Virus record (IMG/VR): IMGVR_UViG_3300034104_006814
Span: 1 to 64,000 of that record
Source of the DNA: a virus
Strand: one strand, 5' to 3'
Length of the DNA stretch: 64,000 bases
In this document: piece by piece, positions 35,922-58,420 of the stretch
How the letters are laid out: the number at the start of each line of letters is the position of its first letter
How positions within the stretch are numbered: position 1 is the first letter of the stretch
Position numbers and translations under genes: made by a program
The notes under the pieces: model-generated
The model's database searches: none
Told to the model about the DNA's origin: nothing
Seen by the model: the letters and a program-made list of their open reading frames with translations, nothing else

Positions 35922-36206
35922 ATGAATTCGACCTTTATAGAGATCGCTGCAGATAAATTTCACGAATTTATCATTGAAAATCTTCCAAAGCATCAAGCTT
36001 CAGCCAACTTAGTTAATGAGTTAGCGTATCAAAGATTTCATTTAATGAATTCTTTCAAAAAAAATTTTATTAATGAAATATTAAATAATTATTACGGCAT
36101 TCATTACGTTGGATTTGCAAACACAAATGATCAAAATTTAATTTATAAATTGTCAGTTATAGATAAAAAACTTTGTACTTTTTTTCTTTTGAAATATGGA
36201 GCATGA
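35922..36206 (+). CDS. hypothetical protein
   Basis: 94 residues (MNSTFIEIAADKFHEFIIEN), helical, no known domain. First gene of a five-gene set of overlapping small genes that precedes the sigma factor. Confidence 0.6.
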   Translation: MNSTFIEIAADKFHEFIIENLPKHQASANLVNELAYQRFHLMNSFKKNFINEILNNYYGIHYVGFANTNDQNLIYKLSVIDKKLCTFFLLKYGA

Positions 36207-45534: not shown

Positions 45535-47349
45535 ATGGAATCGTTAAATCAATTTTCCGAAAATAAAAAATATATTCAAAATGAAATATATAATAGTGTT
45601 GAAAAAATTTTAACTAAAGAATCCATAAATAAAAATGTTTGCGACGAAATTTACAAATCAATAGAAAAAATTTTAAATAAAGAAAATGTTGTTAATGAAA
45701 CAAATTTAACAGTAGTTACTGGAATTTGGGATTTAAAAAGAGATCAGGCTGGAGAAGGATTTAAAAGGCCATTTTCTCATTATATTGATAATTTTAAAAA
45801 GTTGCTAAAAACAGATGTGAATATGTTAATTCATATTGAAAAAAAATATGAACATATAGTATGGGAAAACAGAAGCCCTCATAATACAAAAGTAGTCCTA
45901 AAAGAAGTTGATTATTTTCGAAATAATTTTGATTTTTACGATCAAATTCAAAAAATTAGAAATGATGAAAGTTGGGTTAATTCTGCAGAGTGGCTAAAAA
46001 ATAGCACGCAAGCAACATTGGAATTATATAATCCAATGGTTATGTCTAAATTTTTTATGCTGCATGACGCAACATGCTTTAATTATTTCAATACCGATTA
46101 CTTTTTATGGATTGATGGAGGTTTGACCAATACGGTTCACGAAGGATATTTCACTCATGATAAAGTTTTAAATAAAATAACAAAATATTTAAAATCTTTA
46201 TTTTTCTTATCATTTCCATATGTTGGAAATGATGAAATTCATGGATTTAGTAGAGAGGGAATGAATAAATTTTGCAATAAAAAATACGTTGATTATGTTT
46301 GTAGAGGAGGTTTGTTTGGAGGTCATAAAGATTTTATTAAAAAACATAATTCAACTTACTATGAAATTTTAAGATCATCTCTTTCAGAAGAATTTATGGG
46401 CACAGAAGAAAGTATATTAACTATACTTTCTCATAAACACCCGAGAGATTGCTCCAGATATATTTTGGATGAAAATGGATTGGTTGGAAAATTCTTTGAA
46501 GCATTAAAAAATGATGAAGTAGAAAAAGATTTAATTTTTGAAAAAGAAAAAAAAGTTTCTTTATATGTTTTAACTTATAATTCTCCAGATCAATTTGAAA
46601 CATTGATTGAAAGCTACTTGAAACATAAAAATTTTGTAACAAAAACAGATAATTACTTAATAGATAACAGTAAAGATTTAAGCACTACAGAAAAATATTT
46701 GGAACTATGTAAAAAATATAATTTTCAACATATTAAAAAAGATAATATTGGAATATGTGGCGGCAGACAATTTGCAGCTGAACATTTTGAATCCTCAGAT
46801 TCTGATTTTTATATCTTTTTGGAGGATGATATGAATTTAATGCCTCCAAATAATTCAGTTTGCAAAAGTGGCTTTTTAAGATATACAGAAAATCTTTTTG
46901 AAAAATGTCTTGAAATAATGACGAAAGAGAAGTATGATTTTCTAAAACTTAGTTTTTCTGAATTTTATGGAACCAATAACATCCAATGGGCTTGGTATAA
47001 CGTACCTCAAGATATTAGAGACAAATTTTTTGAGAAGAAGCAGTTGCCACATTTAGGATTAGATCCAGACGCCCCGCACTTAACATTTAAAAATATTAAA
47101 GTTTATAAAAATTTAGCTTATGCAGATGGAGATGTTTATTATTGCAATTGGCCACATTTTATTTCAAAAGATGGAAATAAAAAAATTTTTTTAGATACAA
47201 AGTGGGCACGCCCATTTGAACAAACATGGATGTCTCATGCATTTCAACTCACAAAAGAAAATAAAATAAATTCAGCAGTCCTACTATTATCTCCAATAGA
47301 TCACGAAAGATTCGATCATTATTCAGCAGAAGAAAGGAAAGAAAGTTAA
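45535..47349 (+). CDS. bifunctional glycosyltransferase: HtrL/YibB-like + GT2
   Basis: 604 residues. After about 55 charged residues with two copies of a NxxNEIYxSxEKILxKE-like helix, an HtrL-like domain follows (TVVTGIWDLKRDQAGEGF, TDYFLWIDGGLTNTVHEGYF, CRGGLFGGHKDFIKKH). From about residue 338 comes a GT2 domain: VSLYVLTYNSPDQFETLIES, DNIGICGGRQFAAEHF and YIFLEDDMNLMPP (acidic metal site). Last gene of the glycosylation cassette; joined to the next by TAATATG. Confidence 0.75.
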   Translation: MESLNQFSENKKYIQNEIYNSVEKILTKESINKNVCDEIYKSIEKILNKENVVNETNLTVVTGIWDLKRDQAGEGFKRPFSHYIDNFKKLLKTDVNMLIHIEKKYEHIVWENRSPHNTKVVLKEVDYFRNNFDFYDQIQKIRNDESWVNSAEWLKNSTQATLELYNPMVMSKFFMLHDATCFNYFNTDYFLWIDGGLTNTVHEGYFTHDKVLNKITKYLKSLFFLSFPYVGNDEIHGFSREGMNKFCNKKYVDYVCRGGLFGGHKDFIKKHNSTYYEILRSSLSEEFMGTEESILTILSHKHPRDCSRYILDENGLVGKFFEALKNDEVEKDLIFEKEKKVSLYVLTYNSPDQFETLIESYLKHKNFVTKTDNYLIDNSKDLSTTEKYLELCKKYNFQHIKKDNIGICGGRQFAAEHFESSDSDFYIFLEDDMNLMPPNNSVCKSGFLRYTENLFEKCLEIMTKEKYDFLKLSFSEFYGTNNIQWAWYNVPQDIRDKFFEKKQLPHLGLDPDAPHLTFKNIKVYKNLAYADGDVYYCNWPHFISKDGNKKIFLDTKWARPFEQTWMSHAFQLTKENKINSAVLLLSPIDHERFDHYSAEERKES

Positions 47350-47350
47350 T

Positions 47351-47530
47351 ATGAAACAAAATACAGTGCCATTTGAATTGGATTTAAACGAATTCCCCAA
47401 AGATCTTCTCATAGAATTTATTATTTACGCTCATGAAAAAGACTTGACATTCAATCAAGCTTTAGTTAAATTGCTTGAGGATTTTCTATCTCTAGAAAAT
47501 AAAAATCAATCAGAACTACCATTACAGTGA
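47351..47530 (+). CDS. small acidic hypothetical protein
   Basis: 59 residues (MKQNTVPFELDLNEFPKDLL), helical and acidic. TAATATG start; GTGA overlap with the next gene. Confidence 0.55.
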   Translation: MKQNTVPFELDLNEFPKDLLIEFIIYAHEKDLTFNQALVKLLEDFLSLENKNQSELPLQ

Positions 47531-47781
47531 AAAAAATATTTCTACTTGTCGCAGTATTAATAACGTCAGTAACAATCTATATGAATGCAGAATCTCCATT
47601 AAAATGTGAAGTTTGCAACAACGGAATTTTAAAGAAAACAAATAAAACGGCAATTTTTGAACTTTCCGATAATGTTTTAAAACCCAGATTAGATGCAGAA
47701 TTTTTAAAGTGCGATCATTGTCAATCTTTTGTACCAACAAAAAATTATAATGCTTATTTTTCAATTCCCGCTCCTAAATAA
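47527..47781 (+). CDS. exported zinc-ribbon-like protein
   Basis: 84 residues with a GTG start that overlaps the previous stop (GTGA). Signal peptide MKKIFLLVAVLITSVTIYMN, then CEVCNNG and CDHCQSF, two CxxC pairs that likely bind one metal. Role unknown; a similar exported Cys protein follows. Confidence 0.6.
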   Translation: MKKIFLLVAVLITSVTIYMNAESPLKCEVCNNGILKKTNKTAIFELSDNVLKPRLDAEFLKCDHCQSFVPTKNYNAYFSIPAPK

Positions 47782-47803
47782 CTAAAACTTAACAAAAATC
47801 AAA

Positions 47804-47841
47804 AACACGCACTTGACATAAGTTCTTGTGCGTGTTATTTT
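47804..47841 (+). promoter_or_regulatory. promoter embedded in an inverted repeat / terminator-like hairpin
   Basis: TTGACA (47813-47818), 17-bp spacer, TATTTT (47836-47841), 8 nt before ATG 47850. The promoter sits inside the inverted repeat AACACGCAC (47804-47812) / GTGCGTGTT (47828-47836), followed by ATTTTTT. The same bases can act as an intrinsic terminator for upstream transcripts and a promoter for downstream ones; the repeat may also be an operator. Confidence 0.75.
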
Positions 47842-47849
47842 TTGGCACT

Positions 47850-48137
47850 ATGAAAAAAATCCTCCTTGTTTTAACTCCTCTCGTGTTGCTCGGCATGAAG
47901 TTTGAACAGACCGAAGAAATTAAACCAGCAAAAGAAGAGTTTAAAATAAAAGAAATTGTTTACCCTTCGGCGCAATGCGCAGCAGCTATAAGCAATAATC
48001 AAATTCAGGTAAGCGGCGATGACGTGGCTCCTTATGCTCACTGCAACACTTGCGGTTACGGAGCATTTCTAGGAGATGAAGGCAATGAAAAATGCACATA
48101 CTGTGGAGTCAAAAAAAACTACGCTTCCAGAAAATAG
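47850..48137 (+). CDS. exported protein with zinc-ribbon-like end
   Basis: 95 residues from ATG 47850, not the GTG at 47826, which lies inside the promoter. Signal peptide (MKKILLVLTPLVLLGMKFEQ), then CNTCGYGAFLG and CTYCGVKK, a four-Cys ribbon. Its last 35 nt overlap the first gene of paralogue array 1. Confidence 0.65.
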   Translation: MKKILLVLTPLVLLGMKFEQTEEIKPAKEEFKIKEIVYPSAQCAAAISNNQIQVSGDDVAPYAHCNTCGYGAFLGDEGNEKCTYCGVKKNYASRK

Positions 48138-48351
48138 CGTAAAGATCCAAGATATATTATATTGGAACGCATTCACTCAACTTTTCGAAGAGCACGAAGA
48201 ATCTTCGTGGTATGATCTAAGTTACCAAGAATTAGATGTAATGTGGCTTGGTTTAAAAGAAATATCTTTCGAATCCGACTCTGGCCACAGAGTTTTTGAA
48301 GTAATTGATAAAAAAAAATATCTCTGGGCTAAATTGAAATATGGAATCTAA
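48103..48351 (+). CDS. array-1 paralogue 1 (KYGI family)
   Basis: 82 residues from a GTG start chosen because it yields MESKK, like paralogue 2. Ends in FEVIDKKKYLWAKLKYGI, the family signature. The next gene's ATG is formed inside the TAT-GGA codons of this Tyr-Gly. Unknown function; see the family finding. Confidence 0.65.
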   Translation: MESKKTTLPENSVKIQDILYWNAFTQLFEEHEESSWYDLSYQELDVMWLGLKEISFESDSGHRVFEVIDKKKYLWAKLKYGI

Positions 48352-48637
48352 AAAACAATTTCCTCTTCTAAAAATAGAAAGAGAAAAATATTGGGATATA
48401 GTTTATTCTTGCCTAAGCAAAAAGACAAAAGAATCCTACGAAGATTTTGGCGATTGGTTTGAAAGCGATAATTCTGTTTTATTTAGTCATTTAGTAGATT
48501 ACAGAATGGGTCTTCGAATTTGTAGAGAAGAAGAAGATGGAGACTTTTACGGAGATGAAGATTATCACCATGTATTTTATTTCAATATAATTGATCAGAA
48601 AAAGTGTTTGTGGGCTAGACTAAAATATGGAATATAA
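48341..48637 (+). CDS. array-1 paralogue 2 (KYGI family)
   Basis: 98 residues (MESKKQFPLLKIEREKYWDI). Acidic middle (REEEDGDFYGDEDYHH) and a C-terminal FNIIDQKKCLWARLKYGI. Overlaps the previous and next genes by 11 nt at the Tyr-Gly codons. Confidence 0.7.
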   Translation: MESKKQFPLLKIEREKYWDIVYSCLSKKTKESYEDFGDWFESDNSVLFSHLVDYRMGLRICREEEDGDFYGDEDYHHVFYFNIIDQKKCLWARLKYGI

Positions 48638-48866
48638 AATTAAATCTTCCACATTTTGGACAAATATAAAAAATGTATACAATCATAGTGACGACTGGCA
48701 TCTTGCTGAGAAAAAAATTCAAAAAATTACTCAAAAAGAATTGGGTCTAAAATTTATAGAAACTTTTTATTCGGACGAGCTAGATCGCCCTTATGACTCT
48801 ATATTTCTTTTTGAGGTTGTAGATCAAAATAAATTTCTCTGGGCTAAATTAAAATATGGAATATAA
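48627..48866 (+). CDS. array-1 paralogue 3 (KYGI family)
   Basis: 79 residues (MEYKIKSSTFWTNIKNVYNH), C-terminal FEVVDQNKFLWAKLKYGI. 11-nt overlaps on both sides. Confidence 0.7.
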   Translation: MEYKIKSSTFWTNIKNVYNHSDDWHLAEKKIQKITQKELGLKFIETFYSDELDRPYDSIFLFEVVDQNKFLWAKLKYGI

Positions 48867-49092
48867 ATCTACTTCATTTGGAGTAACTGTTGACCATGAT
48901 TTAAGTTTGGACGAAATTGAAAATGTTCATCGTTTTTGGAGAGAATATAGAGAACAAGATTTTTTTCTTTATATGACTTGGAATGAATTTAAAGATTTAA
49001 TCGGTTTAAGTCACATGCATGACAGGCTTCCAAGATGGAAGATTGAAAACAAAGAAAAATGGATTTGGGCAAAACTTAAACATGGAATTTGA
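48856..49092 (+). CDS. array-1 paralogue 4 (KYGI family)
   Basis: 78 residues. A middle motif MTWNEFKDLIGLS resembles EWSSLSKLMISLG of array 2. C-terminal WKIENKEKWIWAKLKHGI, a diverged signature. 11-nt overlaps on both sides. Confidence 0.7.
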   Translation: MEYKSTSFGVTVDHDLSLDEIENVHRFWREYREQDFFLYMTWNEFKDLIGLSHMHDRLPRWKIENKEKWIWAKLKHGI

Positions 49093-49282
49093 TCAAATTA
49101 ATATTTATTGTAAAACTTACGACGACCTTTGTTTTAAACTTGGCCAAGAATTAGATATTTCTTTTGAAGAAATAGATTATAAATTTGGTTTGGTTTTTGT
49201 AAAAACATTGGGAGAAATTTATACTTTTGAAGTTAGAGATAAGGGTAAATATTTAATGGCAAAATTGAAATACGATATTTAA
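49082..49282 (+). CDS. array-1 paralogue 5 (KYGI family)
   Basis: 66 residues from ATG 49082, chosen over the in-frame ATG at 49019 because it repeats the 11-nt overlap pattern. C-terminal FEVRDKGKYLMAKLKYDI. Shortest of array 1. TAATATG to the next gene. Confidence 0.65.
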   Translation: MEFDQINIYCKTYDDLCFKLGQELDISFEEIDYKFGLVFVKTLGEIYTFEVRDKGKYLMAKLKYDI

Positions 49283-49283
49283 T

Positions 49284-49643
49284 ATGGGATTAGATTCATT
49301 TTTAAAATATGTTGATATAAAAGACGCAATTGACGATTTTACTGTCGCACAAGACAGTAGAATGAATGAATTTAGATATTGGAGAAAACATCATCCTTTA
49401 CATAATTGGATGCGAAGACTTTTTGTAAGAAAGGGCGGAGATTTATCAGTTAATCAATTCAATTGTGATAATGTTAGAGTAACAATTCAAGATTTAGAAT
49501 CATTAAAAAATGATATGGACTGGCATGATGAATATGGAGATGATTACGACCATCGGTATAATGATCTAGCATTTGCAGATGAGGCAATTTTTTTTCTCAA
49601 AAAAAATCCAGATAAAACTTTCTATTTTTATAGTTGGTATTAA
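49284..49643 (+). CDS. conserved phage hypothetical (MGLD...YWRK...HNW family)
   Basis: 119 residues beginning MGLDSFLKYVD, with FRYWRKHHPLHNWMRRLF and later an acidic segment and FFLKKNPDKTFYFYSWY. This MGLDxxL/YWRKxxxxHNW pattern is widespread in phages and is of unknown function. Confidence 0.75.
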   Translation: MGLDSFLKYVDIKDAIDDFTVAQDSRMNEFRYWRKHHPLHNWMRRLFVRKGGDLSVNQFNCDNVRVTIQDLESLKNDMDWHDEYGDDYDHRYNDLAFADEAIFFLKKNPDKTFYFYSWY

Positions 49644-49659
49644 TTTTTCAACAAACCTC

Positions 49660-49687
49660 TTGATTTGTCAAAATTTTCACCTATAGT
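49660..49687 (+). promoter_or_regulatory. sigma70-type promoter
   Basis: TTGATT (49660-49665), 16-bp spacer, TATAGT (49682-49687), 9 nt before ATG 49697. Confidence 0.65.
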
Positions 49688-49696
49688 GGCCTCACC

Positions 49697-49912
49697 ATGA
49701 GCTTAACATCTATCAAAACCCTCTGCACTTGCTGCCAGCAACCACTGACTTGCGAATGGCCAAATCAAATGAATTGGCAAGGCGAAACTGTATCCGCTAT
49801 CGAATACATGGTTCATGCATTAAATTCTGATGATGTGCAAATTTTATGTGATCAATGTTTAGATGAGTTACCAGAAGTTGAAATGGAAAGCATGGAAGTA
49901 GAATATATTTAA
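49697..49912 (+). CDS. small protein with zinc-ribbon-like Cys pairs
   Basis: 71 residues: CTCCQQPLTCEW near the start and CDQCLDELPE near the end give two CxxC pairs. The end is acidic. TAATATG junction to the next gene. Possibly a metal-bound adaptor. Confidence 0.65.
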   Translation: MSLTSIKTLCTCCQQPLTCEWPNQMNWQGETVSAIEYMVHALNSDDVQILCDQCLDELPEVEMESMEVEYI

Positions 49913-49913
49913 T

Positions 49914-50228
49914 ATGAAACAATACGTTAAATTAACTAAAATTAAAGCCTCTGAAAATCCCGAGTATCCAACTCCGCATTGGAACACTTATAAACATGGA
50001 ACTATAAATAAAAATACTTCCATACCGATTGATTATTGGGTAGAAGGTTATTTGATCAAGCCAATTGAGGTGGGTCAATCTGTAGCTATTGATAGAACCG
50101 TTAGAAATGGCGAAAGAGTTTCTGGCATTATGGTAACTTCAAAGATTATTGAGATCAATGGAGGTATTTTAGAGACTTTAAATTCAATTTATAAGATTGA
50201 ATATTTGGAAGAAAATTCAGTAAAGTGA
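49914..50228 (+). CDS. hypothetical protein
   Basis: 104 residues, beta-rich (DYWVEGYLIKPIEVGQSVAI, RNGERVSGIMVTSKI). Resembles small SH3/OB-like barrel proteins of phages, function unknown. Its stop lies 1 nt before the next -35 box. Confidence 0.6.
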   Translation: MKQYVKLTKIKASENPEYPTPHWNTYKHGTINKNTSIPIDYWVEGYLIKPIEVGQSVAIDRTVRNGERVSGIMVTSKIIEINGGILETLNSIYKIEYLEENSVK

Positions 50229-50229
50229 G

Positions 50230-50258
50230 TTGACTTTGGTAAATGTTTGCCGTATATT
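50230..50258 (+). promoter_or_regulatory. sigma70-type promoter
   Basis: TTGACT (50230-50235), 17-bp spacer, TATATT (50253-50258), only 6 nt before ATG 50265. Transcription should begin on or next to the A of the start codon. Confidence 0.8.
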
Positions 50259-50264
50259 GCACCT

Positions 50265-50498
50265 ATGAGTCCAAGCATCCTTGTTAAAGATTGCAACACG
50301 CAACAGTTCGTTAAAATTTTCGCTACCTCCAGCGATCTTACTGCTTTCCTTGCCAGCGAAAAGCAGTTGGGTGTAGACATTGCCGATAGATATTTAGTTT
50401 ATAAATTTGCTGTTGATCAGGTTTTTTGCGCGGACGAAGCTCTTGATGCAATCAAGAGTTTCGGTTACCTTCCAAGCTATGACGAATATCAAGCCTAA
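50265..50498 (+). CDS. hypothetical protein
   Basis: 77 residues (MSPSILVKDCNTQQFVKIFA). The in-frame ATG at 50247 is rejected because it lies upstream of the predicted transcription start. No known domain. Confidence 0.65.
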   Translation: MSPSILVKDCNTQQFVKIFATSSDLTAFLASEKQLGVDIADRYLVYKFAVDQVFCADEALDAIKSFGYLPSYDEYQA

Positions 50499-50502
50499 TA
50501 AC

Positions 50503-50670
50503 ATGGAAAAGTTCAACCTTGATATCACAATTGAATCCTGCGAAAGTGAAGACGTATACATGCTTCATTCGCGAGTAATGAAATGCTGCTACCCAGTCAA
50601 AAAAGAACATATCTTTTCTGAGGTTGAAGATCTGATCAAGGAGTACATCGACATCCAATCTAGCTATTAA
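50503..50670 (+). CDS. small hypothetical protein
   Basis: 55 residues (MEKFNLDITIESCESEDVYM) with Cys residues at CESED and KCCYP. An alternative ATG at 50479 would add 8 residues and overlap the previous gene. Unknown function. Confidence 0.5.
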   Translation: MEKFNLDITIESCESEDVYMLHSRVMKCCYPVKKEHIFSEVEDLIKEYIDIQSSY

Positions 50671-50671
50671 T

Positions 50672-50995
50672 ATGAAATATATTGCATTGTTTTTATTGTT
50701 CTGCGTAAACTGTTCAGCTAACGAAGGTGTAGCATCATGGTATGGAAGAGAAAACAGAATCAGTTCTACTGGCAAGCCTCTCAATAATAAACTTTTTGCA
50801 GCTGCTCATAGGCACCTACCTATCGGTAGTAAAGTAAAAGTCACATCAATCAGAACAAAGAAATCTGTTGTTGTGGTAATTGAAGATCGCGGACCTTATG
50901 CAAAATCAAGAATTATTGATTTAAATTATCTTGCCGCAAAAAAGTTGGGCATTCTTAAATGTGGGATCACTAAGGTCAAATTAGAAAGAATTTAA
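50672..50995 (+). CDS. RlpA-like exported protein (double-psi beta-barrel)
   Basis: 107 residues. Signal peptide MKYIALFLLFCVNCSANEG, then the RlpA core: GVASWYGRENRISSTGKPLN, LFAAAHRHLPIGSKVKVTSI and VVVIEDRGPYAKSRIIDLNY (with the catalytic-type Asp and His). RlpA proteins are lytic transglycosylases or peptidoglycan-binding. The usual SPOR domain is absent. May aid lysis or cell-wall passage. Confidence 0.85.
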   Translation: MKYIALFLLFCVNCSANEGVASWYGRENRISSTGKPLNNKLFAAAHRHLPIGSKVKVTSIRTKKSVVVVIEDRGPYAKSRIIDLNYLAAKKLGILKCGITKVKLERI

Positions 50996-50996
50996 T

Positions 50997-51212
50997 ATGA
51001 AAAAATGGCCACAGGTTGGTGCTAAAATAAAGTATAATGGTATTGGCACTTTCTGGTTTAATGATATTGTTAATAACGCTCGCGAAAACTTAGAAGTTGG
51101 TAAAATTTATACAATAAGAACAATAAAAGTTCTTTCTAGTTGGTGCAGTATTACGTTAGAAGAAACAGGTAATATAGTTTATTCCCTTAATTTTTTTGAT
51201 TATGAAGCATAA
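50997..51212 (+). CDS. small hypothetical protein
   Basis: 71 residues, beta-rich (WPQVGAKIKYNGIGTFWF, NLEVGKIYTIRTIKVLSSWC), SH3-like in pattern. TAATATG start; 11-nt overlap with the next gene. Confidence 0.6.
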   Translation: MKKWPQVGAKIKYNGIGTFWFNDIVNNARENLEVGKIYTIRTIKVLSSWCSITLEETGNIVYSLNFFDYEA

Positions 51213-51411
51213 AATTGTTGTTCAAGATTATTATCAAGAGTGTGGAGAAGGATGCTGCGTAGAGTACGGACATCTATGGTTTGTTGATGGTAATCATATT
51301 CACAGCAGCCCATGCCAAGACAGCGGATGGTTAGCTGTTTTAAATTATTTAGGAATTGAAGCTGAGTTGGTTGGTAAGAATGAAAACGGAGAAGAAACTT
51401 GGTCGCTTTAA
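51202..51411 (+). CDS. small Cys-containing hypothetical protein
   Basis: 69 residues from ATG 51202 (MKHKIVVQDYYQECGEGCCV). CGEGCC and later CQDSGW. The motif YYQECGEGCCxEYGHxWxVDG occurs in small phage proteins, function unknown. Confidence 0.6.
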   Translation: MKHKIVVQDYYQECGEGCCVEYGHLWFVDGNHIHSSPCQDSGWLAVLNYLGIEAELVGKNENGEETWSL

Positions 51412-51412
51412 C

Positions 51413-51841
51413 ATGAAGATTATACTCAATAATTATAAATATATTGAGAAAATTTTTAAGATTAAGTTTTTAAAGCCCGAAATTAAAATCCATAAAAATG
51501 GATTTATTTCTGTTGTGGTTGATTGGTCCACAAAGAATTGTGACGAAGGAGAAGGTTATAAATTTAAATATGTTGAACTGGCTTACAGTAGTTCTGGTGG
51601 ATTAGTTTACCTACCGACAAGAAAGAAGCCTCTTTATAATCTTAGAACTGCATCTTTTGATTTTGAAGATCTTAAAGATCATTCATTGAAACAGCCTCCG
51701 TTTGATATCACCATAGCTTCCGACAAAGAAGACAATGATTACGATTATTTATTTTTCCATAACACAAAGTATGGAATAATTTGTTGGTTTGCACCAAGAG
51801 GTTGGGAAGATTGGGATAACGCAGTAGATTTCAAACAATAA
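51413..51841 (+). CDS. hypothetical protein
   Basis: 142 residues from ATG 51413 (MKIILNNYKYIEKIFKIKFL); the upstream in-frame ATG lies within the previous gene. Beta-rich with aromatic end YGIICWFAPRGWEDWDNAVD. Unknown. Confidence 0.55.
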   Translation: MKIILNNYKYIEKIFKIKFLKPEIKIHKNGFISVVVDWSTKNCDEGEGYKFKYVELAYSSSGGLVYLPTRKKPLYNLRTASFDFEDLKDHSLKQPPFDITIASDKEDNDYDYLFFHNTKYGIICWFAPRGWEDWDNAVDFKQ

Positions 51842-51844
51842 ATT

Positions 51845-52363
51845 ATGAATAAAATATCTCAAGAACCTGTAGTTGATGTTTATAATTTTATTTATAATAT
51901 ATCTTATAATATGTTGGAATGCCATCATGTTTCATTAGACATGGCTCAAAGCATTTATTTAAAATATCTTAAAAAGCTAGAAGAAAATCCAGAAATGGAT
52001 GAAAACTATAAAAGATTTTGGCTAATAAGAGTTGTAAAAAACAAATGCTCAAATTACGTAAGAGATAATAAAAAATTTTCATCTTTAGATTCTTTAGATT
52101 CGATTGATTTTACGCTTGCTATTGATCAATCCCCTAATCCACAAGAAGCTTTAGAACAAAACGAAGAAAAAGATTGTTTGTATAAAAAATTAAGAGATAA
52201 TATAGCCAAACTTCCAATTGATCAAAGAAAAGTTTTAAATTTAAAATACGATCAACAACTTCGCTGCGAAGAGATTTCCAAGAAAACTGGATTTACTGTG
52301 TCCAAGATAAAATGCGTGATACATAGAGCCAAAACAACCCTGAGAAAAAAAATGACAAGATGA
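51845..52363 (+). CDS. ECF-type RNA polymerase sigma factor (2)
   Basis: 172 residues. Region 2: MLECHHVSLDMAQSIYLKYL and FWLIRVVKNKCSNYVRDNKK; region 4: LPIDQRKVLNLKYDQQLRCE + EISKKTG, with a helix-turn-helix ending in HRAKTTLRKKM. Only distantly similar to the 37.5 kb factor, so they may recognise different promoters. ATGA overlap with the next gene. Confidence 0.85.
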   Translation: MNKISQEPVVDVYNFIYNISYNMLECHHVSLDMAQSIYLKYLKKLEENPEMDENYKRFWLIRVVKNKCSNYVRDNKKFSSLDSLDSIDFTLAIDQSPNPQEALEQNEEKDCLYKKLRDNIAKLPIDQRKVLNLKYDQQLRCEEISKKTGFTVSKIKCVIHRAKTTLRKKMTR

Positions 52364-52593
52364 AAAAGCCGACTCAAAAACAAAAAATTGAAATGTATGA
52401 AAAATTTATTGATAATCTTGCTCTATATGCCGAAGTGGGTAATGCTAAATTATTATGGACATTAATTGATAACGCTGCAGAATTTTCTTATGCTCATAGA
52501 GTTGGCAATGGAGAGTACGAAGAAGAACAGCAAGAAAAAATTATTGCAGCAAAGTTTTGGAATCTAACAACAGTTCCAGATGTATTTTTATGA
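52360..52593 (+). CDS. hypothetical protein
   Basis: 77 residues (MKKPTQKQKIEMYEKFIDNL), helical, directly coupled behind the sigma factor gene. An anti-sigma or co-regulator role is conceivable but only from position. Confidence 0.55.
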   Translation: MKKPTQKQKIEMYEKFIDNLALYAEVGNAKLLWTLIDNAAEFSYAHRVGNGEYEEEQQEKIIAAKFWNLTTVPDVFL

Positions 52594-53138
52594 ATTATAC
52601 AAAAATTGGCGCGCTGCCGACACATAGGTATATCTGGGTCGATAGTAAGTACACTCACGAAAAGCCAGAGGGTCTTGTTGAGGCTATGTGGGTAGGGCTA
52701 ACATCCATTCCTGGACGGGCATGGGGCATCAATGTCATTCTCCGCGATGGAGGCGCGTTGTACCGCAATATACCTCCTCATGCGATAGCTTTCTGCAATG
52801 CATCCCTCATCGAATGGCACATCAGTGATGCTCAGTTGTGGGATTGTTATAGTTATAATTTTTCAATATTGCAGAATCCTATCATGCGAGGCATGGAAGT
52901 AACTGCAAAAATAAATAGCGAAACCATCTTGCATGGAGAATACCTTTTCTCAGTTACGCATTTGCACGATGGTTGGTCCGACTCGCCAGATCAAGACAAA
53001 GAATTTATCTTCATAAAGCTTGACAATGGTAGACTAACAATTCAACCTACTAACAAAGTTCTCTTTATTGATCCGAGTTTTGTCACTCCAAGAATACCAC
53101 AATTAAAATTACAAGAACAAATATACTCCTGCGAATAA
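52590..53138 (+). CDS. conserved hypothetical protein
   Basis: 182 residues from ATG 52590 (ATGA overlap). MNYTKIGALPTHRYIWVDSK, then GRAWGINVILRDGGALYRNI + PPHAIAF, ending in a beta-rich half. The first half is clearly less AT-rich than its neighbours, suggesting a different origin. No catalytic motif recognised. Confidence 0.65.
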   Translation: MNYTKIGALPTHRYIWVDSKYTHEKPEGLVEAMWVGLTSIPGRAWGINVILRDGGALYRNIPPHAIAFCNASLIEWHISDAQLWDCYSYNFSILQNPIMRGMEVTAKINSETILHGEYLFSVTHLHDGWSDSPDQDKEFIFIKLDNGRLTIQPTNKVLFIDPSFVTPRIPQLKLQEQIYSCE

Positions 53139-53139
53139 T

Positions 53140-53340
53140 ATGGGACACTCAAACTACGAACTAACAGACGAACAGAAGAAAGCATTGGATTTCATTGCTG
53201 AGATCTTCATTGATAAAATTGAAGATGCATTGGCAGATGATGCTGGAGGCATTCTAGATCCATATGTAGGCAGAGAGTTAGACAACAATAAACTCACTGC
53301 AATGGTATGGTACGTTGGTGATTATATTTCTGCTTCTTAA
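53140..53340 (+). CDS. small acidic hypothetical protein
   Basis: 66 residues (MGHSNYELTDEQKKALDFIA), helical, acidic. TAATATG junction on both sides. Confidence 0.6.
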   Translation: MGHSNYELTDEQKKALDFIAEIFIDKIEDALADDAGGILDPYVGRELDNNKLTAMVWYVGDYISAS

Positions 53341-53341
53341 T

Positions 53342-53602
53342 ATGAATCTACTTAAATTAACAATAGCTAATGGACCTGAAAAAGGTGGTTCTCTTTATCT
53401 CAACAAAGACAAGATCTGTGGTTTCACTCCAATCATATGTCTATTGGGACCAGCTTCAGAGTACGGAAAAGAAAAAGGTTCTAATGTTTTAATGGAATGC
53501 CATCGTTCATACGAGGTTGAAGAAAAGGTTGAAGATATTTGTAAAATGTTAGAAAGCAGTAATGGTTATCTTCAGATAACTTCTATGCCTAAGAAAGATT
53601 AA
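53342..53602 (+). CDS. small hypothetical protein
   Basis: 86 residues from the TAATATG start (MNLLKLTIANGPEKGGSLYL). ICGFTPIICLLGPASEYG and KVEDICKMLESSNG are the clearest segments. Unknown. Confidence 0.6.
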   Translation: MNLLKLTIANGPEKGGSLYLNKDKICGFTPIICLLGPASEYGKEKGSNVLMECHRSYEVEEKVEDICKMLESSNGYLQITSMPKKD

Positions 53603-53603
53603 T

Positions 53604-53957
53604 ATGAGAACAATCAAGTTTAGGATGTGGTCAAAAGAAGCAAAGAAATTCTTTTATGATCCAGAAAATGTGTACGAGTGTTTAAAGTTTAGTCAATTGC
53701 CTGCTACAGCAAATTTATACCAAGATATGGTATGGCAACAATTCACTGGATTTTACGATAAAGGAGGACAAGAGATTTACGAGGGAGACATCGTAAAAGA
53801 TACATTCTATCAAGAGATTACTGCAAAAATTGTTTACAATTTGGGTTGCTTTTGGTTAGATAGTAGTCATCTTGGAGAAGATCGTGAAAGAGAACTTTAT
53901 GATTCAGGTCATTTAAACATTGAAGTAGTAGGAAACATTTTTGAAAATGAAATTTAA
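53604..53957 (+). CDS. YopX family protein
   Basis: 117 residues. TIKFRMWSKEAKKFFYDPEN, QQFTGFYDKGGQEIYEGDIV and IEVVGNIFENEI are the defining blocks of the YopX family, common in phages of many hosts. Function is unknown; it is usually an accessory early gene. Overlaps the next gene by 11 nt. Confidence 0.9.
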   Translation: MRTIKFRMWSKEAKKFFYDPENVYECLKFSQLPATANLYQDMVWQQFTGFYDKGGQEIYEGDIVKDTFYQEITAKIVYNLGCFWLDSSHLGEDRERELYDSGHLNIEVVGNIFENEI

Positions 53958-54246
53958 CAGAAAACTCCTTGAAGAAGAAACTCTTCAAAAGATTAAAGAA
54001 GTTAATGATGAAGCTGGATACCGAAGTTATCTTGAGGTTCCAGAGATGGTGAATATTATTGCTTCTATTATTGAGCAGCAAGCGCAGGACTGGGAATCTT
54101 GTGCCGACAATTTAGTTGACTATGCTCATGAATTTGTGGCAAACTTATCTACATGGGGCAAAGGATACGATAGATACGACAAAGATATCAAAAAAGCGGA
54201 AGACGCTATTGAACAATATAAAATATTAAAAAATGGAACAGTATAA
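53947..54246 (+). CDS. hypothetical protein
   Basis: 99 residues (MKFNRKLLEEETLQKIKEVN), helical. The start at 53947 is favoured over the TTG two codons upstream. Overlaps the next gene by 14 nt. Confidence 0.55.
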   Translation: MKFNRKLLEEETLQKIKEVNDEAGYRSYLEVPEMVNIIASIIEQQAQDWESCADNLVDYAHEFVANLSTWGKGYDRYDKDIKKAEDAIEQYKILKNGTV

Positions 54247-54631
54247 AATTAACCTACTTAAACTTGCAGCTAAACATAATTTCATTTATGATGTTGCATG
54301 GAACGAGGATCTAGTGTTTAGTATTACTTGCGGCGATGTATTTTATCGTGCGGCAGATGATGAAGTCATCACTTCACAAGAAGATGTTGACATGCTTGAA
54401 CAAGCATCTAAAGATCTGTTAGAAATTAATGATAATGCAAATGCTTGGGCCACTATTTTATTTACAGCAAGAAAGCGTAAGATGCGACCTTTAAAAGATT
54501 GGTATCTTGGGCTTGACGATGAGATTGTAAAATTATTTAATGCTTGCGCACCAAAACGTCACGCTACCAAAGAAGAAGCATTAGCCCAGTATAATTGGTT
54601 AAAGGCCAATAGCAAAAGAAACAAAAAATGA
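54233..54631 (+). CDS. hypothetical protein
   Basis: 132 residues (MEQYKINLLKLAAKHNFIYD), helical, ending in a basic tail. No recognised domain. ATGA overlap with the next gene. Confidence 0.6.
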   Translation: MEQYKINLLKLAAKHNFIYDVAWNEDLVFSITCGDVFYRAADDEVITSQEDVDMLEQASKDLLEINDNANAWATILFTARKRKMRPLKDWYLGLDDEIVKLFNACAPKRHATKEEALAQYNWLKANSKRNKK

Positions 54632-55011
54632 AAATCAATAGAGAAGAACTCCACAGACTATACCTCAACAAAGTAACCGAAGTTGCAGAAGAATGCGATT
54701 GGGTCACTTCTTTTTCTATTGAAGATGTTGTTCGTTTGATTTCTTTGGTTATTGAACAGAATCCTCACGTTGTTCAGGTTGACATCAATCCGCATGATGG
54801 ATCTACTTTAGATAATTTTCTATTAGAAGAAGAGAATGCAAGACTTAAAAAAGAATTAAAAAGACTCGAAAGAACAAACTCGCAACTAAGGGACGAATTA
54901 TCAAATCCTCCAGCAGATGTTCAAGAATATGTCTTGCATAAGTTGGGGGTTCGTGAGATAATCATGGAGCTAGAGAAAGAAATAAGAGATCTTAAAGATC
55001 ATATCAAATAA
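54628..55011 (+). CDS. coiled-coil hypothetical protein
   Basis: 127 residues. A leucine-rich coiled coil (LEEENARLKKELKRLERTNS) in the middle and a helical C-terminus (LEKEIRDLKDHIK) suggest oligomerisation. TAATATG to the next short gene. Confidence 0.6.
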   Translation: MKINREELHRLYLNKVTEVAEECDWVTSFSIEDVVRLISLVIEQNPHVVQVDINPHDGSTLDNFLLEEENARLKKELKRLERTNSQLRDELSNPPADVQEYVLHKLGVREIIMELEKEIRDLKDHIK

Positions 55012-55012
55012 T

Positions 55013-55084
55013 ATGAAAATCTTCATGATTATTCTTGCATTAGCTATACTCTACGCTTCTTCTCATTGGGAACATCATGATTAA
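55013..55084 (+). CDS. 23-residue membrane peptide
   Basis: MKIFMIILALAILYASSHWE then HHD. Start in a TAATATG junction; overlaps the next small frame by 8 nt. The position supports it; too short to prove. Confidence 0.35.
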   Translation: MKIFMIILALAILYASSHWEHHD

Positions 55085-55175
55085 AATACAAGATGAGATA
55101 ATTTTTGGAATACTTAATGCTTTGTCTATTCTCGCTTTGATTGCTTTTGGTAGATGGTTTGATAAACACATATGA
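55077..55175 (+). CDS. 32-residue membrane peptide
   Basis: A single hydrophobic helix (IIFGILNALSILALIAFG) followed by RWFDKHI. Overlaps both neighbours; probably a real micro-gene. Confidence 0.4.
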   Translation: MIKIQDEIIFGILNALSILALIAFGRWFDKHI

Positions 55176-55342
55176 AAGAATATCCAGAAGACTACAAAGG
55201 TCCAAAAGCAGGTCATTCTTCTGACGAAGAATGGCTTGCGGTTCGATGGTATGAAGCTTATATTTATATTTTAAATGGCACATGGACATATTGTGATTTT
55301 GATTGTTTTTGCGTAGCATTAGAGAGAAGTAAAATTAAGTAA
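55172..55342 (+). CDS. small hypothetical protein
   Basis: 56 residues (MKEYPEDYKGPKAGHSSDEE). Aromatic and Cys-containing end (WTYCDFDCFCVALERS). ATGA overlap with the upstream peptide. Confidence 0.5.
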   Translation: MKEYPEDYKGPKAGHSSDEEWLAVRWYEAYIYILNGTWTYCDFDCFCVALERSKIK

Positions 55343-55348
55343 ATAATT

Positions 55349-55531
55349 ATGGAAAAGAAAAGAGTTTACGTTGTTTTTGCGGATACGCCTTTCGCTGATT
55401 ATCAATTTCGCGCCCTCTTCTTCACGGAAGAGGCTGCAAAACAATATGTTTCAAAGCGTGCTACACCAAAAAATTGCACAATAGAGATATTTGAAGAAAT
55501 GGAAGATGGAGCAAGCAAAGAGATTTATTAA
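55349..55531 (+). CDS. small hypothetical protein
   Basis: 60 residues (MEKKRVYVVFADTPFADYQF). Alternating strand/helix pattern (AALFFTEEAAKQYV-like), possibly a ferredoxin-type mini-fold. TAATATG to the next gene. Confidence 0.6.
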   Translation: MEKKRVYVVFADTPFADYQFRALFFTEEAAKQYVSKRATPKNCTIEIFEEMEDGASKEIY

Positions 55532-55532
55532 T

Positions 55533-55748
55533 ATGAACTTACAAGATTTTACAAACAAAAAGCACACACATTATCTTATTGGTTATCTCGAAGATGATGA
55601 GTTTTGGTGTGTGAATGAATGCGGCAGTCTCAAAAGCGCTTTCGAAATGATTGAGCATCATAAAATTCTTTCTAAATCTAATAATTTAAATCATAGAGAT
55701 TATATCATTTTAGAAAAGCAAATCACATACTCTCAAGTAAAAGTATGA
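55533..55748 (+). CDS. small hypothetical protein
   Basis: 71 residues from the TAATATG start (MNLQDFTNKKHTHYLIGYLE). DEFWCVNECGSLKSAFEMIE is the only notable segment. ATGA overlap downstream. Confidence 0.55.
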   Translation: MNLQDFTNKKHTHYLIGYLEDDEFWCVNECGSLKSAFEMIEHHKILSKSNNLNHRDYIILEKQITYSQVKV

Positions 55749-55864
55749 ACGGAAAAGGATCAAAACCGCGACCAATTAAAAATATTAATAAATACATATC
55801 AAATTGGGAACAGATAAACTGGAAAAAGACGAAGTCCAATTCAACTGGCAAAGGCTCAAGTTGA
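55745..55864 (+). CDS. 39-residue basic peptide
   Basis: MNGKGSKPRPIKNINKYISN..., basic, with GKGSKPRP, a start seen in small phage proteins. Overlaps the first gene of array 2 by 61 nt. Confidence 0.45.
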   Translation: MNGKGSKPRPIKNINKYISNWEQINWKKTKSNSTGKGSS

Positions 55865-56043
55865 TGATGATGAAAATGGGTCACTTCGATAAAACGGGTG
55901 ATCCAATTGCGCAGTTTAGATGGACAAATATAGGTTTAGAGCGTAAGATTTATAATCAATTAAATTACGGCTGGGTATTTAAGGTAGTGGATAAGCAAAA
56001 GTTTACCCATGCCGTAATTAAATATGACTTGCTTTCATCATGA
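55804..56043 (+). CDS. array-2 paralogue 1 (KYGI family)
   Basis: 79 residues if the TTG at 55804 is used, supported by alignment of NWQRLKLMMMKMG with EWSSLSKLMISLG in the next paralogue. An ATG at 55864 would remove that segment. Signature FKVVDKQKFTHAVIKYDL near the end. Confidence 0.6.
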   Translation: MGTDKLEKDEVQFNWQRLKLMMMKMGHFDKTGDPIAQFRWTNIGLERKIYNQLNYGWVFKVVDKQKFTHAVIKYDLLSS

Positions 56044-56336
56044 GTGAATATATTGTTTTAGACCAGTACATGAAGATCCAGAAGACTGGCAATGATTTCA
56101 TTTACATGGAATGGTCTAGCTTGAGTAAATTGATGATAAGTTTAGGATGGATTAATAAAGATATAGCTGCTTTCTCAGCTTATAATTACAAATGGGAATT
56201 TATTGGTTTAAAATATATCAAAAGGACTTTTAAAAAATCCACTCTGTTACATTTTGAGGTAGTAGATAAAAATAAATTTTTGTTTATACTTCTAAAACAC
56301 TGCACTGACTTCGATGGAATACATTATCATAGATAA
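56040..56336 (+). CDS. array-2 paralogue 2 (KYGI family)
   Basis: 98 residues (MSEYIVLDQYMKIQKTGNDF). EWSSLSKLMISLG in the middle and FEVVDKNKFLFILLKHCT, with ten more residues after the signature. ATGA overlap with paralogue 1. Confidence 0.65.
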   Translation: MSEYIVLDQYMKIQKTGNDFIYMEWSSLSKLMISLGWINKDIAAFSAYNYKWEFIGLKYIKRTFKKSTLLHFEVVDKNKFLFILLKHCTDFDGIHYHR

Positions 56337-56631
56337 ATTTTTGATTTGGCAGATTGAGGAAGAAATTCTAAAAGAAAATGTTGATGTAGGTATAGAAAAT
56401 TATACCAATCAAATGCTTGACCAAATAGAAGAAATACTAGGAATCGAGCATCATATTGTAGATTTAGATACTATAATTGATACATTAGATTTGCATGACA
56501 ACTATCTATTCAAGGTAGTAAATAAGCATAATTTTTTGTTCGCGGTTATAAAATATAATTTGAAATTTACTGTTGTTGATATTGATCCCAAAGCATACAA
56601 AAGAGATTTTAATAAATCGTGGATTCTCTAG
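56314..56631 (+). CDS. array-2 paralogue 3 (KYGI family)
   Basis: 105 residues (MEYIIIDKFLIWQIEEEILK). Signature FKVVNKHNFLFAVIKYNL followed by a 23-residue tail. Overlaps paralogue 2 by 23 nt. Confidence 0.65.
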   Translation: MEYIIIDKFLIWQIEEEILKENVDVGIENYTNQMLDQIEEILGIEHHIVDLDTIIDTLDLHDNYLFKVVNKHNFLFAVIKYNLKFTVVDIDPKAYKRDFNKSWIL

Positions 56632-56632
56632 A

Positions 56633-56896
56633 ATGAGCTTTATTAAAATTGACATCGTAACTATTGCTCAAATGGCGATAAAATACACAACCCTGTATCC
56701 TAATGAAGGTACAGATTGGAAACATTTTGGCTTAGAAAGAGTAATGGATAAAAATAAATCTAATTATAAAGAAGCTTTCCCCACAGGAGAAAGGGTACTT
56801 CCAGGCATATTTGAGATAATAGATAAAGAAAAGTTTTTGTGGGTAATTATGAGTTTTGATTTTAAATATACTGTTTATGAATGTGGCGATCAATAG
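56633..56896 (+). CDS. array-2 paralogue 4 (KYGI family)
   Basis: 87 residues from ATG 56633 (MSFIKIDIVTIAQMAIKYTT). Signature FEIIDKEKFLWVIMSFDF, then KYTVYECGDQ. Overlaps paralogue 5 by 20 nt. Confidence 0.65.
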   Translation: MSFIKIDIVTIAQMAIKYTTLYPNEGTDWKHFGLERVMDKNKSNYKEAFPTGERVLPGIFEIIDKEKFLWVIMSFDFKYTVYECGDQ

Positions 56897-57092
56897 AGAT
56901 GCGGCATTGAGAGCAATATTTGCATTTGAAATGGATAACAAAAAAGAATTTAGATATTGGGAAAATTTAGGCATCGAATATCTCCAAAGTGGAGATGGCA
57001 GCAGATGGTATTTCAAAGTAATTAATAAAGAATTATTAATGTGGTCTATGCTTAAATACGGATTTGAAATCGAGTCATATAGTAATTTGTAA
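56877..57092 (+). CDS. array-2 paralogue 5 (KYGI family)
   Basis: 71 residues from ATG 56877 (MNVAINRDAALRAIFAFEMD). Signature FKVINKELLMWSMLKYGF. Last gene before the 1-kb non-coding region. Confidence 0.65.
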   Translation: MNVAINRDAALRAIFAFEMDNKKEFRYWENLGIEYLQSGDGSRWYFKVINKELLMWSMLKYGFEIESYSNL

Positions 57093-57654
57093 TAAGATGC
57101 CCCTTGTAAAAGGCATTTGTGACGCATTGAGACACGATTGTAGGGGTTGATTTATTGATTGGCTACATTGTGCCAACTTCGTTGGCAACTGCCACGCAAC
57201 AGAGTAAATTGTAACAACGTCTCGCCCGCCTTGTATAATAAACAATAGAAGAATGAATAAAGTATATAATAGGACATACAGTAAAGAAAAGAAAAGAAAG
57301 TATTAATAAGAATTAAAATGTGAAATAACTGAAGTAAAATGTTATATAAAAAGTGAAATGTTATAATAAAATACAAAATGTGAAATGAAAAACAGCAAAA
57401 ATGAAAGAGGTAAAATGAGGGAAAGTGAAAGAGGTAAAGTGAAAGAGGTGAAGTGAAAGAGGTGAAGTGAAAGAGGTAAAATGAGGGAAAGCATCTGCCC
57501 CCTTTATCTTTCTTTTCGTTCAATTCCTTAATGCAACTCACTTGCAATAACGCCCCACAATCCCGCTCGGGCAAAACATGCCGACAAAACTTCAAAATAT
57601 CTCAAAAAACTACCGAACGGGAAAAACATGCCGACGAAATTTCCAAAAAATTAT
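57093..57654. other. non-coding AT-rich region
   Basis: About 560 bp with no convincing gene; the one long minus-strand frame (57152-57595) is low-complexity Ser/Phe/Leu/His, produced by purine repeats on the other strand. It holds an imperfect hairpin (ATGCC...GGCAT, 57098-57116), AAATGTGAAAT/AAAATGTTATA repeats (57310-57390), the 14-bp array at 57401-57490, and two copies of a CGGG(C)AAAACATGCCGAC element (about 57568 and 57619). Confidence 0.7.
57401..57490. repeat. 14-bp purine-rich tandem repeats
   Basis: Four contiguous copies of GTGAAAGAGGT(A/G)AA (57425-57480), plus a related copy at 57401-57414, bracketed on both sides by ATGAGGGAAA (57415-57424 and 57481-57490). The strand is almost pure purine. 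Iteron-like; a possible replication origin or protein-binding array. Confidence 0.85.
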
Positions 57655-57683
57655 TTGACACGGGCCAAATAAACGTATATACT
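57655..57683 (+). promoter_or_regulatory. strong sigma70-type promoter without a following gene
   Basis: TTGACA (57655-57660), 17-bp spacer, TATACT (57678-57683). No protein gene follows for 400 bp. A diverged copy of the same block (CCAAAAAATTACTTGACACG..., 57759-57793) has the -35 but not the -10. Confidence 0.8.
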
Positions 57684-57980
57684 GGGACAAACTGTGCTTT
57701 GTAAACGCCTGCGCCGCAAGACGTTATGGCACCGAATAAAAACTTAACTCAAAAAAATCCAAAAAATTACTTGACACGAACCAAATAAGCGTCTTGCGGC
57801 GGGGGGTCAAAAAATTACCAAAAAATTACCAAATAAAGCCCAAATAACGGCCAGGACTTTTGGGGGGGTTTCGCAGCGTTTCGCACGATTTCAAATGTTT
57901 TCGTTAGATTAGATAAGATCTGCTTATAATAGGAAGAATCAAAAATTAGCGGGAAAGAACGAAATAAAGGGTGAGGTTGG

Positions 57981-58000
57981 GGCCAGGGGCACCCCTGGCC
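57981..58000. repeat. dispersed palindrome, copy 1
   Basis: GGCCAGGGG-CA-CCCCTGGCC, a 9-bp perfect stem with a 2-nt centre. One of five copies of CCAGGGG(CA/TG)CCCCTGG in the right-hand 6 kb. Confidence 0.9.
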
Positions 58001-58008
58001 TAGCACGT

Positions 58009-58038
58009 CCCATGCCAACTGGCATGGGATATTTTTTT
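58009..58038 (+). terminator. intrinsic terminator
   Basis: CCCATGCC-AACT-GGCATGGG followed by ATATTTTTTT. It ends the candidate ncRNA and stands 12 bp before the next -35 box. Confidence 0.9.
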
Positions 58039-58050
58039 GTTAAAAAGCTG

Positions 58051-58079
58051 TTGACCACCTCATTTGTATGTGGTTTAAT
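58051..58079 (+). promoter_or_regulatory. sigma70-type promoter
   Basis: TTGACC (58051-58056), 17-bp spacer, TTTAAT (58074-58079), 10 nt before ATG 58090. Confidence 0.75.
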
Positions 58080-58089
58080 TATCACCGTT

Positions 58090-58380
58090 ATGAACAACAA
58101 CATTGTTACCTCCACCTCCACTGAAACCGCAACTGTCAAGCGTGGGCGCGGTCGCCCGCATGGCAGCAACTCGTTTGAAAATGTGCAGATCAAGCATCTG
58201 CTTAATTTCCTTTCTGAGGATGCCAGCGTTCCTGTATCCAAGATCTGGATGCGCGACACGCTTGGTTGCATTATCGAAGCTCGTCCGTTGCAGGTTATCA
58301 AGAGTGATGATACTACCCACCACATCATTGAACAACCAGAAGAAAAAGTTCAGTACGCACTCGAAACTTTCGAGGAATAG
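58090..58380 (+). CDS. small DNA-binding protein with AT-hook
   Basis: 96 residues from ATG 58090; the in-frame ATG at 58012 lies in the terminator and ahead of the promoter. VKRGRGRPHGSNSF is a classic AT-hook (RGRP core). The rest is a helical region (QIKHLLNFLSEDASVPVSKI) and acidic end. May bind AT-rich phage DNA, possibly near the adjacent repeats. Confidence 0.7.
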   Translation: MNNNIVTSTSTETATVKRGRGRPHGSNSFENVQIKHLLNFLSEDASVPVSKIWMRDTLGCIIEARPLQVIKSDDTTHHIIEQPEEKVQYALETFEE

Positions 58381-58383
58381 TTG

Positions 58384-58412
58384 TTGACTTGCCTTTTTAA
58401 TTGCCTTATATT
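58384..58412 (+). promoter_or_regulatory. sigma70-type promoter
   Basis: TTGACT (58384-58389), 17-bp spacer, TATATT (58407-58412), 8 nt before ATG 58421: leaderless geometry. Confidence 0.8.
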
Positions 58413-58420
58413 CATTGCTT

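What the first reader, a model, noticed from the sequence alone, without database searches (positions are those of the whole stretch)
48103..57092. Two tandem arrays of a novel paralogous small-gene family (KYGI family)
Ten small genes (five at 48103-49282, five at 55804-57092) share a C-terminal block of the form F-[EK]-[VI]-[VI]-[DN]-K-x-K-[FY]-L-[WF]-A-x-[LI]-K-Y-[GDN]-[IL], and some share an upstream W-x-x-L-x-x-[LI]-[IM]-x-x-x-G segment. The N-terminal parts vary in length and sequence. I know no described family with this signature. A variable front and constant tail, expanded in tandem, is what one expects of rapidly diversifying inhibitors or anti-defence proteins that plug into one common partner. 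The sequence match is seen; the function is inference.
Basis: partly seen in the sequence, partly recalled or inferred. Interest (0 to 1): 0.85.

Follow-up and report, generated by a model that had tools for sequence, protein, structure and literature searches.

The report
Unnamed small-protein family in phages
An uncultured virus of bacteria carries eleven small genes that all make versions of one compact, undescribed protein shape; distant relatives occur in other viruses, each version has been kept separately for a long time, and nobody yet knows what they do.

Summary
The ten genes are homologous (profile E 1e-16 to 1e-30), and an eleventh lies at 35922-36206. Nothing in Pfam, PHROGs or the PDB matches. 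Seven related IMG/VR phages carry 2-8 recognised copies each. The shared block is the last beta-strand and helix of a predicted beta-alpha-alpha-beta-beta-alpha domain (pLDDT 89; a second paralog gives the same topology, pLDDT 87). The block is held at protein level: pN/pS 0.26-0.33, against 0.60-0.65 for the fronts.

The family is probably a branch of a larger, unnamed set of small phage proteins ending in (V/I)(V/I)DE(K/Q)K(Y/F)xxF(L/V)L(K/R)W. A DNA pattern for that ending gave 47 viral stretches, every one at an ORF end. Other phages carry these in clusters too.

'Rapidly diversifying' does not fit. Orthologs group across phages, no phage has its own recent expansion, and selection is purifying. 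Copy number varies; one relative has a probable hybrid gene. Array-1 genes overlap by about 11 nt, the tail codons containing the next ATG.

Best guess for function: small binding proteins on one scaffold, each with its own front surface. Host takeover or counter-defence is possible but untested.

The parts
35922..36206 (+). Family member 'S' (94 aa), stand-alone copy upstream of a sigma-like factor and a MoxR/VWA pair; orthologous in 8 phages
   Evidence: AF2 model
48076..48351 (+). Array 1 gene 1 (91 aa); overlaps the preceding zinc-ribbon gene
48341..48637 (+). Array 1 gene 2 (98 aa); start lies in gene 1 tail; relative in G020
48627..48866 (+). Array 1 gene 3 (79 aa); orthologs in G004, G001, G020; modelled by AF2 (pLDDT 89)
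48856..49092 (+). Array 1 gene 4 (78 aa); orthologs in G004 and G001
49082..49282 (+). Array 1 gene 5 (66 aa), start corrected to the ATG inside the gene 4 tail; orthologs in G004 and G001
55804..56043 (+). Array 2 gene 1 (79 aa), TTG start conserved in G004 and G020
56040..56336 (+). Array 2 gene 2 (98 aa), ATGA overlap with gene 1
56314..56631 (+). Array 2 gene 3 (105 aa), acidic; ortholog in G004 equally acidic
56633..56896 (+). Array 2 gene 4 (87 aa), no clear ortholog in G004
56877..57092 (+). Array 2 gene 5 (71 aa), ATG inside gene 4; ortholog in G004
48339..48351 (+). Example of the stop/start junction ATATGGAATCTAA: KYG codons of gene 1 contain the ATG of gene 2 (11-nt overlap); the same arrangement joins genes 2-3, 3-4 and 4-5

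Best explanation
The eleven genes encode one family of 66-105-residue single-domain phage proteins with a beta-alpha-alpha-beta-beta-alpha fold. The conserved C-terminal block is the last beta-strand and helix of that fold, and fronts differ from paralog to paralog. The paralogs are old and each is kept separately, so each probably binds its own partner (a host or phage protein) through its own front surface, on one shared scaffold. In array 1 they are probably made in step by translational coupling, because each gene's start codon lies inside the previous gene's tail. Shown here: homology, conserved positions in relatives, purifying selection, overlapping start codons. Predicted: the fold. 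Inferred: coupling, that they act by binding, and that the targets belong to host takeover, counter-defence or phage assembly. The family is probably one branch of a larger unnamed superfamily of small phage proteins ending in DE(K/Q)K(Y/F)xxFLL(K/R)W.
For: Ten genes plus an eleventh in one profile; members in seven related phages, several in synteny. Two AF2 models from separate alignments give the same order of elements, pLDDT 89.3 and 87.2. Ortholog groups across phages with strong support. dN/dS below 1 wherever it could be computed; tail pN/pS 0.26-0.33 against 0.60-0.65 for fronts, with similar pS in both. pI from 4.4 to 9.8 across paralogs, which argues against one shared charged ligand. 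Superfamily link: hhalign A6-A8 score 34.3, E 2e-6, against a maximum of 15.0 in 60 column-permuted nulls, and 18.2 with the pattern-selected columns masked. In reverse, the A8 profile, built only from other phages, hits only family genes in G000 and the S genes of G004 and G001. Overlapping gene pairs are known to be translationally coupled (PMC6728339; abstract).
Against: No function, partner or expression is shown. Foldseek finds no confident structural relative (PDB none below E 0.1; best viral hit E 0.03, TM 0.6). No model was made for an array-2 member. The tail helix is hydrophobic all round and carries near-invariant lysines, so a shared contact or oligomer interface is not excluded.
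Confidence: 0.5

Rival explanations
1. The tail is a docking module: all paralogs plug into one common phage or host component through the C-terminal strand and helix, and the variable front carries the effector.
For: Tail is the most constrained part; near-invariant D/N-K and L-K-Y positions and a helix without one clear buried face. In other phages proteins with very different fronts keep a similar ending.
Against: The tail is predicted with pLDDT above 90 as part of a compact domain, so its conservation can be structural. There is no recognisable separate effector domain in the 66-80-residue members.
Confidence: 0.25
2. The paralogs are subunits of one hetero-oligomer that assemble through the common C-terminal helix, which would explain ordered, overlapping genes.
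For: Stop/start overlaps join all five genes of array 1 and are kept in G004 and G001; overlapping gene pairs often encode subunits of heteromeric complexes (PMC10666635, title).
Against: Recognised copies range from 2 to 11 per contig and members are spaced apart in G020, G021 and G023, which does not suit an obligate complex of fixed composition.
Confidence: 0.15
3. A KH-like nucleic-acid-binding domain: the order beta-alpha-alpha-beta-beta-alpha and a variable loop between the last two strands are those of a type I KH domain.
For: Secondary-structure order; two KH domains among weak PDB hits.
Against: Those hits have E 0.4-0.7 and TM 0.37-0.39; no G-x-x-G loop is conserved in the alignments; pI ranges from 4.4 to 9.8.
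Confidence: 0.07
4. The tail is conserved mainly as DNA, because it contains the next gene's start codon and is the site at which tandem copies recombine.
For: Near-identical AAATATGGAAT(C/A)TAA junctions in three phages; a probable gene 1/gene 3 hybrid in G004.
Against: Synonymous change in the tail is about as high as in the front (pS 0.50 against 0.57 in array 1, 0.66 against 0.63 in array 2), and genes without the overlap keep the tail.
Confidence: 0.03

Closest known systems
Unnamed small phage proteins ending in (V/I)(V/I)DE(K/Q)K(Y/F)xxF(L/V)L(K/R)W (IMG/VR loci L151-L197; found here, not in Pfam or PHROGs)
   Same: Same ending at the very C-terminus, same preceding YG(I/L) strand, similar size, clustered copies in several phages; profile-profile E 2e-6 and reciprocal profile hits
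   Different: DE instead of DK, W instead of Y near the end; different phages, some over 340 kb; fronts not alignable throughout
Tandem small genes of Sinorhizobium phage Phosso (PV764938) ending in DAxLFKLxW
   Same: Several neighbouring small genes (about nine in two clusters) with unlike fronts and one shared ending
   Different: Profile comparison with this family is negative and weak with the relatives (E 0.006); an analogous arrangement, membership not shown
Type I KH domain (fold only)
   Same: Order of secondary-structure elements
   Different: No GxxG loop, no significant structural or sequence match
Small phage host-takeover and anti-defence proteins in general (from own knowledge)
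   Same: Small, unlike anything named, in accessory gene stretches of the phage
   Different: Old and individually conserved paralogs under purifying selection; no activity or target known

Membership tests
Unnamed DE(K/Q)K(Y/F)xxFLL(K/R)W superfamily | C-terminal block with V/I-x-D-x-x-K-(F/Y)-x-x-(F/A)-x-L-(K/R)-(W/Y) at the ORF end | tested here: met
Unnamed DE(K/Q)K(Y/F)xxFLL(K/R)W superfamily | Significant profile relation not explained by the columns used for selection | tested here: met
   Masked score 18.2 against a null maximum of 15.0, and a drop to a mean of 18.3 when upstream columns are permuted; A8 hits on G000 genes at E 5.6e-4 and 0.006
Unnamed DE(K/Q)K(Y/F)xxFLL(K/R)W superfamily | Same three-dimensional fold | not tested
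Phosso-type DAxLFKLxW proteins | Homology to this family | tested here: not met
   hhalign E 0.58
Type I KH domain | beta-alpha-alpha-beta-beta-alpha order | tested here: met
Type I KH domain | GxxG loop between the first two helices | tested here: not met
   absent from alignments A5 and A7
Type I KH domain | Significant structural match to solved KH domains | tested here: not met
   E 0.4-0.7, TM below 0.4
Any Pfam or PHROG family | Match above threshold | tested here: not met
Anti-defence proteins | Inhibits a host defence system | not testable with these tools
   needs an experiment
Rapidly diversifying tandem family | Lineage-specific expansion and dN/dS above 1 | tested here: not met

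The most novel reading that the evidence does not exclude
A widespread, undescribed phage system in which many small proteins with unlike fronts carry one common C-terminal module (strand plus helix) that delivers them all to a single shared phage or host component, with gene arrays that can gain, lose and hybridise members at the tail.
Probability: 0.17. Interest if true: 0.8.

Novelty: new variant of a known kind. Interest (0 to 1): 0.48.

Why it matters
Small unknown proteins make up much of phage genomes, and most are left as unrelated hypotheticals. Here a single fold links eleven genes of one phage, and a C-terminal signature links them to small proteins in other phages, some over 340 kb, that Pfam and PHROGs do not group. 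That gives a handle (profiles A6 and A8) for annotating many such genes and a defined question: does the common part bind a common partner, or is it only a scaffold?

Tried and rejected
Match at 20228-20269 on the minus strand: chance, inside another gene. Locus L005 from the first tail pattern: chance. Search of 84,980 bacterial and archaeal species genomes with two tail patterns: no match, so no prophage or host copy was found at those exact patterns. Citrobacter phage Merlin, named by a weak Foldseek hit: no recognisable member in its first 50 kb. Escherichia phage PTXU06 hit: the matched stretch is not at the gene's end. Helical-moment test of the tail: not distinctive. Rfam in 47300-58500: nothing. 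Promoter scan: little above shuffles. PDB sequence search: nothing. Literature searches returned no paper describing such a family.

Full report
What was checked. The window is bases 1-64000 of a 71,107-base IMG/VR phage record. A profile of them finds all ten (E 1e-16 to 1e-30) and an eleventh gene at 35922-36206 (E 1.5e-6), and nothing else in the contig. A motif for the ending, written after seeing the family, occurs in 11 of 366 ORFs of the contig against 0.07 expected from shuffled ORFs; in relatives it again marks family members. No Pfam or PHROG family matches.

Relatives. Scans of viral contigs with a tail pattern, with the VWA and MoxR neighbours and with sub-family alignments gave seven related phage contigs (G001, G003, G004, G020-G023) with two to eight recognised members each, several in the same gene order as the window. 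All eight contigs, the window's included, carry the 35922-type copy ('S'); in those inspected it lies just upstream of a sigma-like factor, a MoxR ATPase and a VWA protein. The cultured-phage collection gave nothing for the family nor for the well-conserved 630-residue protein at 7820, so this phage lineage is itself poorly known.

Age and selection. A tree of 43 members groups S of eight phages (100/98), array-1 genes 3, 4 and 5 across three phages (gene 3 also with G020, 86/91), array-1 gene 2 with a G020 gene, and array-2 genes 1, 3 and 5 across phages; no two genes of one phage form a supported pair. So the paralogs arose before these phages split. Between G000 and G004 dN/dS is 0.14-0.37 for array 1, 0.21 for S and 0.22-0.73 for array 2 (synonymous sites near saturation; one array-2 pair could not be computed), against 0.06-0.08 for the ATPases and the VWA protein and 0.11-0.57 for other genes compared. 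The tail has pN/pS 0.26 (array 1), 0.33 (array 2), 0.22 (S), the front 0.60, 0.65, 0.46, while pS is similar in both. The tail is therefore conserved as protein. Orthologs also share residues in the front, for instance WHL and IQ in gene 3. Copy number does change: array 1 has five genes in G000 and G001 but three in G004, where the first gene joins an N-terminus like gene 1 (VESK...PEN) to a body like gene 3, as expected from loss by recombination between tandem copies; this reading rests on inspection of the sequences.

Gene junctions. In array 1 each gene starts inside the tail of the one before: AAATATGGAATCTAA encodes K-Y-G-I-stop and contains ATGGAA, the next start (11-nt overlap); the same arrangement is kept in G004 and G001. 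After the S gene of G004 and G001 a nucleotidyltransferase-like gene starts at the ATG in the tail; in G000 a different gene does. Few of the longest-ORF starts of this phage have a Shine-Dalgarno-like sequence (2 of 45). Overlap of this kind is known to couple translation (PMC6728339). Coupling here is inferred.

Fold. AlphaFold2 on array-1 gene 3 with 43 sequences gives beta 2-6, alpha 7-13, alpha 29-39, beta 41-48, beta 58-64, alpha 67-77, pLDDT 89.3, pTM 0.76. The S gene with eight sequences gives the same order with one extra helix, pLDDT 87.2. The shared block is the last strand and helix. Foldseek finds nothing convincing in the PDB; the best viral model is an uncharacterised 75-residue phage protein at E 0.03, TM 0.6. 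KH type I has the same element order, but the matches are poor and the GxxG loop is missing. A helical-moment test did not show a one-sided helix, and K at two positions is nearly invariant (36/43 and 38/43), so a shared contact surface stays possible.

A wider superfamily. The profile A5 weakly hit a G026 ORF ending in YGIQLYQQHGTGWTGFDVIDEQKFTMFLLRWG. A degenerate DNA pattern for D-E-x-K-(F/Y)...F-x-L-x-W then gave 47 viral stretches; my rough expectation by chance is below one. Every one lies 13-14 residues before a stop codon, and most have YG(I/L/V) upstream, which the pattern did not ask for. Profile-profile comparison of the window family (A6) with 16 of these (A8) gives score 34.3, E 2e-6. 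Because the pattern fixed some columns, controls were run: with those columns masked the score is 18.2, above all 60 column-permuted nulls (maximum 15.0); with the whole stretch masked 15.5; permuting only the unselected upstream columns drops it to a mean of 18.3. In reverse, A8 hits only family genes in G000 (S, E 5.6e-4; array-2 gene 2, E 0.006) and the S genes of G004 and G001. I take the link as probable. Several of these phages also carry two to five such genes close together, with very different fronts. Sinorhizobium phage Phosso has two clusters, about nine small genes in all, with a DAxLFKLxW ending, but homology to the window family is not supported.

Function. Nothing measured here shows a function. 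The paralogs differ strongly in charge (pI 4.4-9.8) and are each retained, which fits one scaffold with separate partners better than one common ligand. Host takeover or counter-defence is the usual guess for small accessory phage proteins but has no direct support. The host is possibly a member of the Planctomycetota/Verrucomicrobiota group: the phage carries a DUF1501 protein whose best plasmid relative is in Singulisphaera; this is inference.

Noticed in passing
24639-26003: The phage encodes a 454-residue DUF1501 protein (Pfam E 2e-130), 92% identical in G004; best plasmid relative is in the planctomycete Singulisphaera. Suggests a Planctomycetota/Verrucomicrobiota host and a possible auxiliary gene.
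   Followed up: partly
L003 2160-7645 (contig about 65.2-70.6 kb): Six to seven copies of a repeated palindromic unit ATTACGCACTTTGTGCGTAAT, often followed by GCCAGGGGC..GCCCCTGGC hairpins, between small minus-strand genes; may be a repeated operator/promoter-terminator unit.
   Followed up: no
57305-57484: Purine-rich tandem repeats (14-nt unit AAAGTGAAAGAGGT, 6.5 copies) in an apparently non-coding stretch between array 2 and the clamp-loader-like gene.
   Followed up: no
55745-55864: 39-residue ORF MNGKGSKPRPIKNINKYISNWEQINWKK..., whose NWEQINW codons are overprinted by the TTG start of array-2 gene 1 in three phages.
   Followed up: partly
21966-22934: Phage-encoded IMP dehydrogenase/GMP reductase domain (Pfam E 5e-48).
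   Followed up: no
37534-38037 and 51845-52363: Two sigma-70-like factors in one phage; the first sits between the S gene and the MoxR/VWA pair.
   Followed up: no
L238 8863-10349 and 16410-17455 (Sinorhizobium phage Phosso): Two clusters of small, unlike genes that share a DAxLFKLxW ending; apparently undescribed.
   Followed up: partly
L041 3071-3364 (G004): Probable hybrid gene: N-terminus like array-1 gene 1, body like gene 3, consistent with loss of genes by recombination between tandem copies.
   Followed up: partly
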